Source of the DNA: Pseudomonas extremaustralis | GTDB lineage: Bacteria; Pseudomonadota; Gammaproteobacteria; Pseudomonadales; Pseudomonadaceae | Length of the DNA stretch: 64,000 bases | Reading direction: 5' to 3' | Assembly (NCBI RefSeq): GCF_900102035.1 | Contig: NZ_LT629689.1 | Coordinates: 6,296,501-6,360,500, forward strand | Shown: positions 40,837 through 45,275 of the stretch, one piece after another | Layout of the letters: each line of letters starts with the position of its first letter | Numbering within the stretch: the first letter of the stretch is position 1 | Translations under genes and position numbers: made by a program | Notes under the pieces: generated by a model | Told to the model about the DNA's origin: nothing | The model's input: the letters and a program-made list of their open reading frames with translations, nothing else | The model's database searches: none

Positions 40837-42117
40837 TTACTCGGATTTGGCCTGGTGCTTGACGATGATATCCACCAAGCGCTTGGCCAGTGCCGGGTAG
40901 TTCTCGTCGAAGTGATGCCCGCCAGGCAGTTTCACCGCCTCGCCTACCGCCGTCTTGTCGGTACAGCCACTCTCGTCGACTTCTTCGGCACCGTAGATGC
41001 ACACCACCTTGTCCGCCGGCAGCTTGGCCATTTCCGGGCCGGTCGCGGCTTCTTTGCCGGCGTTGCCCAGCCAGCCTTCCACTTCGATTTCAAAGCTGCC
41101 GGTGCGGGCGAAGGCCAGCAGGATGATGGCGTCGACCCGCTGCTGTTCGTTTTCCGGCATGCGGTTGTAGATCGCTGGCAGTACGTCGGCGCCGAACGAG
41201 TAACCGGTCAGCACGAAGCGTTTGGTGCCCCACTTTTGCCGGTAGTGCTGCATCAGTTCGGTGAGGTCCTTGGCGCTCTGTTCCGGAGTCTTGTGCTGCC
41301 AGTAGTAGCGCAGGGTGTCGATGCCGACCACCGGGTAGCCGATCTTGGCCATTTCGCCGGCCACGTCGCGGTCCAGGTCACGCCAGCCGCCATCGCCGGA
41401 GAGGAACAGGGTCACGGTGTCCTTGGCCTGGCCGGCGGGGACTTCCACCACGGGAATCGCCAGGCCGCCGTTGTCCGAACCGACCAGCTGTTTGCGCAGT
41501 TCGTTGTTCAGCACTTGCGGGTAGTGAATGTCGTAGTCGCTGATGCTGGTGGTGGCGCGCGGTGTGTCGCGTACGAAACTGGCGCTTTCATCGTCAGGGT
41601 TGTCGTTCCACGCCACCAGCCAATTGCCATGGGCGGCGGTCTTCGGCAGCGGGTCCTTGCAGCCTTCCTGTACCAGGGTGAAGCCAACGGAGATCGCGTT
41701 GGCTTTGTCATCGTTCTGTGTGGCCAGCCAGCGCCAGGCAAGGGCGGCGCCAGGGCCGATGCCGCTCACCAGCGTCGGTGCGCCCTTGAGCTGGGCCAGG
41801 GCGCCTTGTAGCGCCTGTTCCTGCAGCGTGCAGTCGTCTTTGGGCAGGATCACCTGAACGATTTGTGCCTTGCCGCCCTGGCTGAGGGCGATCAGTTGAC
41901 TGTCGGTCAGGACTTCATCCGCCATCACCGCTACGGCCACGCGGGCTTTTGCTGTTCCGGCTGGCGTCACGCGGGTCATCACCGAACCGTCGGCCTGGGG
42001 CAGTTGCTCCAGGGTCGGTTGCGGGGCAGGGCGGTTCCAGTACCAATAGCCACCCCCCAGGATCAGGGCCAGCAGCACTACAACGGCCAATACATACCGC
42101 CAGGAGCGTCGAATCAT
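40837..42117 (-). CDS. acvB: AcvB/VirJ-family aminoacyl-phosphatidylglycerol hydrolase
   Basis: A 426-residue membrane-anchored periplasmic protein: one N-terminal membrane segment (YVLAVVVLLALILGGGYWYW), then two alpha/beta-hydrolase-like VirJ regions. The nucleophile is the Ser in VLTGYSFGADVLP near residue 305; the C-terminal His lies in LPGGHHFDENY. In P. aeruginosa the neighbour of mprF (PA0919) removes alanine from Ala-PG; that function is inferred here from order and family. Its ATG overlaps the mprF stop (TGATG), so it is coupled to mprF translation, relevant because mprF is frameshifted. Confidence 0.88.
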   Translation of the reverse strand: MIRRSWRYVLAVVVLLALILGGGYWYWNRPAPQPTLEQLPQADGSVMTRVTPAGTAKARVAVAVMADEVLTDSQLIALSQGGKAQIVQVILPKDDCTLQEQALQGALAQLKGAPTLVSGIGPGAALAWRWLATQNDDKANAISVGFTLVQEGCKDPLPKTAAHGNWLVAWNDNPDDESASFVRDTPRATTSISDYDIHYPQVLNNELRKQLVGSDNGGLAIPVVEVPAGQAKDTVTLFLSGDGGWRDLDRDVAGEMAKIGYPVVGIDTLRYYWQHKTPEQSAKDLTELMQHYRQKWGTKRFVLTGYSFGADVLPAIYNRMPENEQQRVDAIILLAFARTGSFEIEVEGWLGNAGKEAATGPEMAKLPADKVVCIYGAEEVDESGCTDKTAVGEAVKLPGGHHFDENYPALAKRLVDIIVKHQAKSE

Positions 42118-44758
42118 CAGCGTTTCACCAATCCAGTCAGGCCACCCGCGATCAGGGCGGCGGTATCGGCCAGTGCCACCAGCGGATCAAGTCCTGCGGG
42201 CACGGCCATGTAACGGGGTTCCCAGTCAGGCTGGAATTTGTCTTTGAAGCGGCGCAAACCTTGGAAGTTATACAGCTGTTCGCCACGACGGAACACCATC
42301 GAGCCCAGGCGTTGGGTCAGCGGCGCGCCACGGCGGGGTTGCAGGCCCGACAATGGCACCATGCCGAGGCTGAAGCGAGCATAGCCATGACTCTTATAGT
42401 GTTGAATCAGGCCGACCATCATGAACTCCATGGTCAGCTTGGGCGCATCGGGGTGGGCGCGCATCAGGTCGAGGCTGGCCAGGTCGTGGTTGTAGGTTTC
42501 AAGCAGGTTGGCGAAGGCCACCGGGTGCCCTTCGAAGCGAACGATCGCGATACGGAAGTGCCTGAGGTAGTCGTTGCTGAAGCGGCCCAGGGAAAAGCCC
42601 TTCTCGCGCACATTCTTGCCGGTCAGCCAGGCGTCGGAAATGACCTTGAGCTCGTCCATCGGCGCGGTGCCCGGTTCGTGGATTTCCAGGGACAGGCCGT
42701 CCCGGGTGCCACGGTTCCAGGTGTAGCGCAAATCCTTCATCTCTTTGCCCTTGGCTTCCAGGTCAAAGCGTTTGAGGTCGACGCGGGCTTCTTCGCCCAG
42801 CTTGATCGCGGTCAGGCCGATGTCCATGTAGTACGGCAGGTTCTCCGCACGCACCTGATAGAACACCGGGCGCGCATGGTGGATGTCGCACAGGTCGCGG
42901 AACTGCCAGATCATCTCGGCGCGGGGCTGGGTCGGGCCGATCGGATCATACAAGGCCACCAGGCTGCGACCGCGACGGGCATACATCAGGAAGGCTTCGT
43001 CGTTGGGGTGGAACAGCAGCGCCTTGTCGCCGGTGAGCGCCAGGCCGCCGTCGGGTTGCGACGAGGCCATCAGGATCTTGGTGGCGCGTTCCAGTTCTTC
43101 CGGCGTTGGCAGGTGAATCACCGGGCGCGCGGTACGCAGCAGCCAGGTCAGCGACACGATCACCAGCAATACCGCAGCCCCAGCAGCGAGCGCAGGCCGC
43201 GCGGGGCGTTGGCGTCGAGGGTGAACTGCCACCACAGTTGATGGCTATAAGGGACGTCTTGATAGGCGAACAGCAGCAGCCAGATCGAAGCCCCGAGCAC
43301 GCAGACGCTGGCCACCAGGTACAGCGGCGAGAACGGCAGTTCGGTCAAGCGGCTGGCGCGATAGAACGAGCGCCGGAAGATGGCCAGCAACACTGCGGTC
43401 ATGGTCATCAGGCTGGCTTCTTCCCAGTCGAAGCCCTTGAGCAGGGACAACAGGGCGCCGGCCAGCAGCAACACCATGGTCAACATCCAGGCCGCCGACA
43501 AGCGTCGACGCAGGCCCTGGGCCAACAGCAGGCACAGTACGCCGATCAGGCTGGCGCCAAAGTGCGAAGCATCAATCAGGCGGTGGGGAATCAGAAAGCC
43601 GATGTTTTCCAGGCGTGAGTCGATTTCTGGCGTGGCGCCGGAAAACAGCAGGACCACGCCGGACAAAAAAACCAGCACGGCCAGTACCGGCGCCGCCAGG
43701 CCCGAGGCGACCCGCAGGCTCTGCTGGGTCTGGAACAGGCGTTGGGCTTCGTTGATCAACAGGAACACGCAGGCGATCAACAGCGGCAGCACCACATAGA
43801 TCATGCGATACAGCAGCAGGGCGGCGGCCAATGGCGCGGCACCCAGCTTGTCGGCGAAGGCGGCGAGCAGGATGGCTTCGAAGACACCCACGCCACCGGG
43901 CACATGGCTGAGCACGCCAGCGGCCAGGGCCAACAGGTACACCAGCAGGAACGGCCCGAAGGGCGGCGCTTCCGGCAACAGCATATAAAGGACCGTGGCC
44001 GCCGCCGCGACGTCCAGGGCCGTGATGATCAACTGCAGGAAGGTCAGGCGACGACCGGGCAGACGCAGGGTGCGACGGCCGGCCTTGACCATCAGGTTGT
44101 CCGGGTAGGGTTGTTCCGGCAGGCGACGGCGATAGATGCCGATGCACAGCATCGCCGACAGCAACAGCACGGCGCCGGCCACACCGCCGAGCAGCATTTG
44201 CGGGAGATGCAGGTAGGTCGAGGCTGCCGGCAGGTTACTCAGCGTGGCTAGCGCCGCCAACGGTGGCAGGGCACAGCCCAGGGCCAGGCTGGCGAACACG
44301 GTCATGTGCGCGACTTCCGAAGCGCCGAGGCCATGGCGTGCATATAAACGGTAGCGAACCGAGCCGCCCGAGAGCATCGATAAGCCGATGGCGTTGCCGA
44401 TGGCGAACGCGGTGAACCCACCCAGGGCGAGGGTCTTGGCGGGCAGTTTCACCCCGGCGTAGCGTGCGCCGGAAAACTCATAGCCCAACAGAACGACGAA
44501 ACCCGCGACTGCAGCGGCAAATGCACCGAGCAACGCTGGCTTGGGCACTTCCAGGATCGAGTCATGGAGGGCGTAGAGGTCCAGCTCGAGCAGCAGGTGG
44601 CGGCAGGCGACGAGGGCGATTGCAAACAGCAGCAACGTAACCGCCAGCCCGATGGGCTGGCGGTACTTGCTTAACAGATCCAGCCAGCGCAAGCGGGTGG
44701 GAGCGATCGGTTGTTCTGCTGTGACGGTGTCTTGTGGTTCAGACGAGTTGGCGCGCAT
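42117..44758 (-). pseudogene. mprF: Aminoacyl-phosphatidylglycerol synthase MprF, split by a one-base frameshift
   Basis: MprF moves an amino acid from tRNA onto phosphatidylglycerol and flips the lipid, protecting against cationic peptides. The first frame (ATG 44756-44758 to a stop at 43160, about 532 residues) holds the multi-span flippase region. A second frame (down to 42117) holds the last membrane segment and the DUF2156 synthase domain (for example FSLGRFSNDYLRHFRIAIVRF). The frames meet at GGGG (plus-strand CCCC at 43178-43181): adding one G gives RSLLGAAVLLVIVSLTWLLR and one uninterrupted 880-residue protein, the family's normal size. No other damage is visible. It could be a true mutation, phase variation, -1 recoding, or a sequencing error. 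Confidence 0.9.
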
Positions 44759-44986
44759 CAATCACCTCGTGGATTGTGCGCGACAGGATGGAGGTATCCA
44801 GCCAAGTTACCAATCCCTATGGACAAAATAATTACAAATATTAACGCGTATCACCGGGGTCGGCGACTGCGGCCATTGGTCGTAGAGGATTAAGCATAGC
44901 GTGCAATGACATGGACTCTATAAAACCCGTACGGTTTCATGAAAGATGCCATGCCATTGTTTCAGAAGAACTTTTTTATCAGATAC

Positions 44987-45018
44987 AAAAAAGGCCACTC
45001 TTTCGAGCAGCCTTTTTT
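44987..45018 (-). terminator. Terminator of tRNA-fMet copy 1
   Basis: AAAAAAGGC CA CTC TTTC GAG CA GCCTTTTTT, just past the CCA end of the minus-strand tRNA gene. Confidence 0.8.
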
Positions 45019-45024
45019 GATGTT

Positions 45025-45101
<77 letters not shown>

Positions 45102-45275
45102 TCTGTGGGCGGCATTCTACAGCCAAGCGGCAGGCTGTCAACCGTTAATGGGCCAATGGGGCAAATAAGTGTGAATTAGCCGCTGGATTGCGACGATGTG
45201 CGGTAAGTGCACGCAAGGAAAAGGTTTTTTGTCGGACAATCGTCCAAGGCGAAAACCTGCGGTCGCAAAAATGCC

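What the first reader, a model, noticed from the sequence alone, without database searches (positions are those of the whole stretch)
42117..44758. mprF split by loss of a single G, with the partner hydrolase gene intact
The two frames join at GGGG (plus CCCC at 43178-43181). One extra G restores an uninterrupted 880-residue MprF with sensible sequence (RSLLGAAVLLVIVSLTWLLR). The break falls at the border between flippase and synthase domains, the downstream acvB is intact and translationally coupled (TGATG), and nothing else in mprF is damaged. Options: assembly or sequencing error, recent null mutation, homopolymer phase variation of membrane charge, or ribosomal -1 slippage giving both a flippase-only and a full-length product.
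Basis: partly seen in the sequence, partly recalled or inferred. Interest (0 to 1): 0.7.

Follow-up and report, generated by a model that had tools for sequence, protein, structure and literature searches.

The report
One-base break in Pseudomonas mprF gene
In this one Pseudomonas genome the gene for a membrane-lipid-modifying enzyme is cut in two by a single missing base; it is most likely an ordinary recent mutation, or a sequencing error, and not a genetic switch.

Summary
On the minus strand mprF is in two frames: 532 codons (43160-44758) and an overlapping downstream frame (42117-43235); the acvB/virJ-type hydrolase gene below is whole and overlaps by TGATG. Each piece matches its own half of MprF; neither reaches the full-length cut-off. 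Of 109 relative loci (106 distinct sequences), 107 read mprF as one frame, and all 108 measurable ones have a longer junction: the break is private among what I searched.
Nothing supports a mechanism: the G run is four long and not a conserved tract, no stimulatory RNA fold, no relaxed selection. In a survey of 398 Pseudomonas genomes mprF is in two frames in 8 of 362 bearers, at different places; alaS, as long and essential, in 3 of 397. So such mprF breaks are often real, but about a third could be errors.
The break lies before the catalytic domain, not at the flippase border. One curiosity: the premature TGA overlaps an in-frame GTG. Verdict: ordinary private frameshift (real about 0.58, error about 0.33); low interest.

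The parts
43160..44758 (-). mprF N-terminal frame, 532 codons plus TGA: membrane part of MprF
   Evidence: NF033480 positions 3-497; 97% identical to residues 1-528 of the one-frame G017 protein
42117..43235 (-). mprF C-terminal frame: the whole soluble aminoacyl-PG synthase domain and a short hydrophobic stretch before it; homology begins about residue 15 of this mechanical ORF
   Evidence: PF09924 322.9 bits; NF033480 positions 489-840; residues 34-372 cover chain 4v34, the crystallised Ala-PG synthase domain
43178..43181 (-). short G run at which the two frames meet; junction shorter than in all 108 measurable relative loci
43160..43163 (-). GTGA: premature TGA (43162-43160) overlaps an in-frame GTG of the C frame (43163-43161), a possible re-initiation site
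   Evidence: read; function not tested
40837..42117 (-). acvB/virJ-type aminoacyl-PG hydrolase gene, whole, 426 aa; start overlaps the mprF stop (TGATG)
   Evidence: PF06057 VirJ 266 bits

Best explanation
The strain, or a recent ancestor, lost one base in a short G run near codon 528 of mprF. Ribosomes leave the frame and stop a few codons later at TGA. The membrane part is made without its catalytic domain, so aminoacyl-PG synthesis is lost or nearly lost, while the downstream hydrolase gene stays intact but without substrate. The event is so recent that neither piece shows decay. Shown: the break in the record, its absence in the relatives searched, the wholeness of the rest of the gene. 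Inferred: that it is in the living strain's DNA and that lipid aminoacylation is lost.
For: Private among the relatives searched. The genome is a single contig, 100% complete by the tool's figure; its alaS aligns whole, 847 of 847 residues in one frame. In 1.19 Mb screened against G017, 22 of 546 conserved ORFs came out split; 20 of the 21 other than mprF were scanned for families (B154 was not), and only recD, a hybrid sensor kinase and a solute-binding protein (the last more likely broken in G017) have the break inside conserved coding sequence with a known family; in the ten newly scanned ORFs that have a family the break lies ahead of the domain. A second whole recD lies about 112 kb from the broken one, as a tolerated real loss would allow. 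mprF is in two frames in 8 of 362 bearing Pseudomonas genomes, at different places, against 3 of 397 for alaS; one-sided Fisher p 0.08 for all, 0.05 for genomes at least 99% complete with assumed denominators. dN/dS of both pieces lies within the spread of 20 relatives, as for a very recent event.
Against: All of this also fits a base-calling error: the site is a G run, there is no second lesion and no clear relaxed selection. mprF, recD and the kinase all lack one base next to a G/C run of 4 or 5, the pattern of homopolymer undercalls as well as of slippage. The mprF/alaS contrast is weak, and one two-frame mprF genome (G034) also has a broken alaS. dN/dS of the pieces is slightly above the relatives' median (rank 4 and 3 of 21), too little to decide anything.
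Confidence: 0.58

Rival explanations
1. Sequencing or assembly error: the living strain has an ordinary one-frame mprF and the record dropped one base at a G run.
For: G run at the site; nothing else damaged against close relatives; near-normal dN/dS; mprF, recD and the kinase all lack one base beside a G/C run of 4-5; 3 of 397 genomes of the same collection carry a frame-broken alaS, which can hardly be real, about a third of the mprF rate.
Against: Genome is one contig and complete, alaS whole; 487 of 546 conserved ORFs whole in the screen and most of the split ones explained by upstream extension or shadow ORFs.
Confidence: 0.33
2. Split but working MprF: translation ends at the TGA and re-initiates at the overlapping GTG, giving a membrane part and a separate synthase domain.
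For: GTGA overlap at 43160-43163; the C frame holds the complete crystallised domain; in S. aureus the two modules work when expressed as separate proteins (PMC2774229, passages including the abstract).
Against: In S. aureus MprF expressed in E. coli, six membrane segments besides the soluble domain were needed and shorter forms made no Lys-PG (PMC2774229 passages); here only a stump would remain. The overlapping letters are coding in several relatives, so the overlap is likely accidental. None of the relatives searched shares the split.
Confidence: 0.05
3. Phase-variable switch of membrane charge by G-run slippage.
For: The break is in a G run.
Against: Run of 4 (10 G/C runs of four in this gene, 246 in the window); in relatives the longest G run nearby is 2 to 5 and follows codon choice. 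An assembly cannot show a mixed population, so this is not excluded outright.
Confidence: 0.02
4. Programmed -1 ribosomal slippage yielding a short and a full product.
For: Frames overlap in the right sense for a -1 slip at the run.
Against: 107 of 109 relative loci encode one frame, so nothing is conserved; the 93 nt from the run fold no better than shuffles (z -0.06, 90 of 200 at least as stable); no Rfam family at the site at gathering threshold.
Confidence: 0.02

Closest known systems
Pseudomonas aeruginosa MprF / alanyl-PG synthase PA0920 with its hydrolase PA0919 (passage in PMC9022664)
   Same: Same two-gene order (synthase, then hydrolase) and domains; the pieces align end to end to solved chains 9goe and 9j8q, named phosphatidylglycerol lysyltransferase (organism not shown by the calls)
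   Different: Here the synthase gene is in two frames; each piece fails the full-length family cut-off
Agrobacterium lpiA-acvB operon (PMC13197417, abstract and section list)
   Same: Aminoacyl-PG synthase gene followed by an AcvB/VirJ-type hydrolase gene
   Different: Lysyl lipid; synthase gene described as working
Other two-frame mprF genes in Pseudomonas (G034, G080, G129, G326, G336, G361, G379; strain TH31, L078)
   Same: Gene in two pieces within one contig
   Different: Each break is at another place; none at this site

Membership tests
Bifunctional MprF (NF033480) | One protein over the full-length cut-off of 600 bits | tested here: not met
   Pieces score 389.5 and 459.4
Bifunctional MprF (NF033480) | Synthase domain PF09924 | tested here: met
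   C piece 322.9 bits against 27.5
Bifunctional MprF (NF033480) | Membrane flippase domain PF03706 | tested here: inconclusive
   N piece 27.3 bits, under Pfam's 33.4, but NF033480 positions 3-497 and 97% identity to the one-frame G017 protein
Bifunctional MprF (NF033480) | Makes aminoacyl-PG and moves it across the membrane | not testable with these tools
   Needs lipid analysis
Frameshifted (pseudo)gene | One frame in relatives, broken by an indel here | tested here: met
   107 of 109 loci one frame; junction longer in all 108 measurable loci
Frameshifted (pseudo)gene | Relaxed selection or further lesions | tested here: not met
   No further lesion; dN/dS within the spread of relatives: recent, or an error
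Phase-variable gene | Long or length-variable homopolymer tract at the switch (recalled criterion) | tested here: not met
   Run of 4; no conserved tract in 108 relative loci
Phase-variable gene | Mixed lengths within the population | not testable with these tools
   Only an assembly is at hand
Programmed ribosomal frameshift gene | Frame change conserved in relatives | tested here: not met
Programmed ribosomal frameshift gene | Stimulatory structure downstream of the slip site | tested here: not met
   z -0.06

The most novel reading that the evidence does not exclude
A natural split MprF: a chance frameshift put the premature TGA on top of an in-frame GTG (GTGA), so that the soluble aminoacyl-PG synthase domain is made as a separate protein by termination-reinitiation, uncoupling lipid aminoacylation from the membrane part while the coupled hydrolase gene stays translated.
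Probability: 0.05. Interest if true: 0.4.

Novelty: already known. Interest (0 to 1): 0.12.

Why it matters
Mainly as a caution: frame breaks in this dispensable ~880-codon gene are not rare (8 of 362 Pseudomonas bearers), and the alaS control (3 of 397) gives a yardstick for how many may be assembly errors. If real, it is one more natural loss of lipid aminoacylation in a fluorescens-group Pseudomonas.

Tried and rejected
Programmed slippage: rejected on lack of conservation and of structure. Phase variation: rejected on tract length and relatives. Decay of an old pseudogene: rejected, no further lesion and near-normal dN/dS. An error-laden assembly throughout: not supported (487 of 546 conserved ORFs whole; alaS whole). 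The 22 split cases (mprF included) contain many that are no gene breaks: B113 is a shadow ORF opposite a whole ffh-like ORF (ffh recognised by eye, no family search); in ten of the twelve ORFs a Pfam domain begins only after the break, so the split is in an upstream extension (leuS-like B16 among them), and the other two of the twelve (B115, B791) had no family; B523 looks broken in G017 rather than here, since its G017 protein leaves the profile at 209 of 250. Of the 22, 11 were inspected as DNA: nine showed one single-base indel, B16 three, B154 a 20-base insertion; the other 11 were not inspected as DNA. B131, B182, B582 and B948 (no family) stay unresolved, and the cases were not polarised with a third genome, save recD and the kinase. 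A conserved break position in the genus: rejected. A library search for a frameshifted Pseudomonas mprF (terms mprF, frameshift, Pseudomonas: 19 papers, 12 listed, only listing and abstract starts seen) showed none on this; that is no proof of absence. A first Fisher value of 0.012 assumed no broken alaS among the more complete genomes; one search showed one (G306), so it is withdrawn. Alignment A1 had three useless rows (L011, L012, L015, wrong strand).

Full report
What is there. The window is 6296501-6360500 of a one-contig genome of 6.67 Mb. By its mprF it belongs with the Pseudomonas fluorescens group: the nearest named copy fetched is 91.3% identical in DNA, from P. marginalis ICMP 3553_3. 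No closer copy was among the loci fetched, but warns that records very near the window may be left out, and the 90% protein clusters could hide conspecific copies. On the minus strand lie an N-terminal frame (44758-43160), an overlapping C-terminal frame (43235-42117) and the hydrolase gene (42117-40837). Pfam and NCBIfam place the N frame on the membrane half and the C frame on the synthase half of MprF, and the third gene in VirJ.

Is the break in the record and private. Yes. Anchors on both sides of the junction were found in 108 of 109; the distance is longer than in the window in all 108. Among proteins, the best relative of the N piece is an 880-residue cluster of 1795 members, 98% identical (best 120 of 739 listed). 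Separate C-terminal proteins also exist in that collection (P0121-P0124); whether they come from frame breaks or contig ends was not checked.

Where it cuts. The N piece matches G017 to residue 528 of 881. Residues 34-372 of the C piece cover chain 4v34, which shares its sequence with 4v35, the crystallised soluble domain of P. aeruginosa MprF. The cut is thus just ahead of that domain. The P. aeruginosa cryo-EM paper names TM1-8 as the flippase domain and TM9-14 as the part that connects to the soluble domain (PMC11980842, passages); for S. aureus MprF six membrane segments plus the soluble domain were needed for synthesis, and shorter forms made no Lys-PG (PMC2774229, passages). So the break does not separate the two known working modules, and the expected result is loss of synthesis (inference).

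How long ago. Both pieces look about as constrained as in 20 relatives: median dN/dS 0.036 against 0.029 (N, codons 1-520) and 0.031 against 0.025 (C, last 341 codons), rank 4 and 3 of 21. Either the break is very recent or it is not in the living strain.

Error or mutation. Three lines. First, a frame-break screen of 1.19 Mb of this genome against 1.20 Mb of G017: 546 G017 ORFs have a best hit of at least 80% identity, 487 whole, 22 split, mprF among them; the other way 534, 482 and 12. Of the 21 others, 20 were scanned for families; the break lies inside conserved coding sequence with a known family only in recD, a hybrid sensor kinase and a solute-binding protein that is more likely broken in G017. 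A second whole recD lies about 112 kb from the broken one. The kinase is whole in 18 of 18 other Pseudomonas genomes searched and in two pieces here. mprF, recD and the kinase all lack one base beside a G/C run of 4-5, which fits slippage and miscalling equally. This genome's alaS is whole. Second, a genus survey: of 398 genomes, 380 have a match and 359 one over the MprF cut-off. I looked closer at 12 with weak best scores: 8 are in two frames within one contig (this one included), 3 are cut by a contig start (G250, G293, G350), 1 is one frame with what looks like a short in-frame duplication (G007). Three of the 12 are under the cut-off, so 8 of 362. The 18 genomes with best E between 2.4e-70 and 7.6e-25 were taken to lack the bifunctional protein and were not inspected; breaks near either end of the gene would have escaped the choice by score. 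Third, the control alaS (essential: recalled), 847 profile positions: of 397 genomes with a match, 7 have a weak best score; 5 of these were inspected, of which 3 (G034, G101, G306) have it in more than one frame within one contig and 2 (G350, G400) show contig ends or partial contigs; the other 2 (G242, G304) and the one without a match (G386) are incomplete genomes and were not inspected. The difference is weak (p 0.08; 0.05 for genomes at least 99% complete with assumed denominators), and the ratio of rates, 0.34, says that about a third of mprF breaks could be errors. I put a real recent mutation at 0.58 and an error at 0.33.

No switch. The run is four long; the window holds 246 G/C runs of four. 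The longest G run nearby is 2 to 5 in 108 relative loci. The 93 nt from the run onward fold like shuffles; in 42000-45200 the only RNA family match is the tRNA at 45028-45101. No promoter-like site by the simple scan lies between the pieces.

An open curiosity. The premature TGA overlaps a GTG in the C frame (GTGA, 43160-43163). Re-initiation there would make the catalytic domain alone and keep the coupled hydrolase gene translated; without it the hydrolase gene might suffer polarity (inference). The same letters are coding in several relatives, so the overlap is likely accidental; a reporter test would settle it.

Context. That PA0920 makes Ala-PG and PA0919 hydrolyses it is from a passage of PMC9022664. 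The lpiA-acvB operon is from the abstract of PMC13197417. That spontaneous and sequencing indels favour homopolymers, that phase-variable tracts are usually longer, and that P. marginalis rots crops is recalled.

Noticed in passing
G000:C1:6092177-6094149 and 5978448-5980409 (outside the window): The recD at the place that matches G017 is in two pieces, while a second recD about 112 kb away is whole (with a further fragment at 5970507-5970713): perhaps a second recBCD set made the first dispensable.
   Followed up: partly
G000:C1:227858-231339 (outside the window): A 1161-residue hybrid sensor kinase is broken near residue 88 here and whole in 18 of 18 other Pseudomonas genomes searched.
   Followed up: partly
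mprF of G000, G034, G080, G129, G326, G336, G361, G379: All 8 two-frame mprF genes break in the membrane part (profile 1-497 of 841; chance about 0.015 if even, counted after the fact); strain TH31 (L078, about codon 578-673) is a counter-example.
   Followed up: partly
G007:C16:7617-10181: mprF in one open frame of 936 codons with what looks like a short in-frame duplication near profile position 446-462.
   Followed up: no
G034, G101 and G306: Genomes with frame-broken alaS (95%, 86% and 99% complete): probably assemblies with indel errors, to be used with care.
   Followed up: partly
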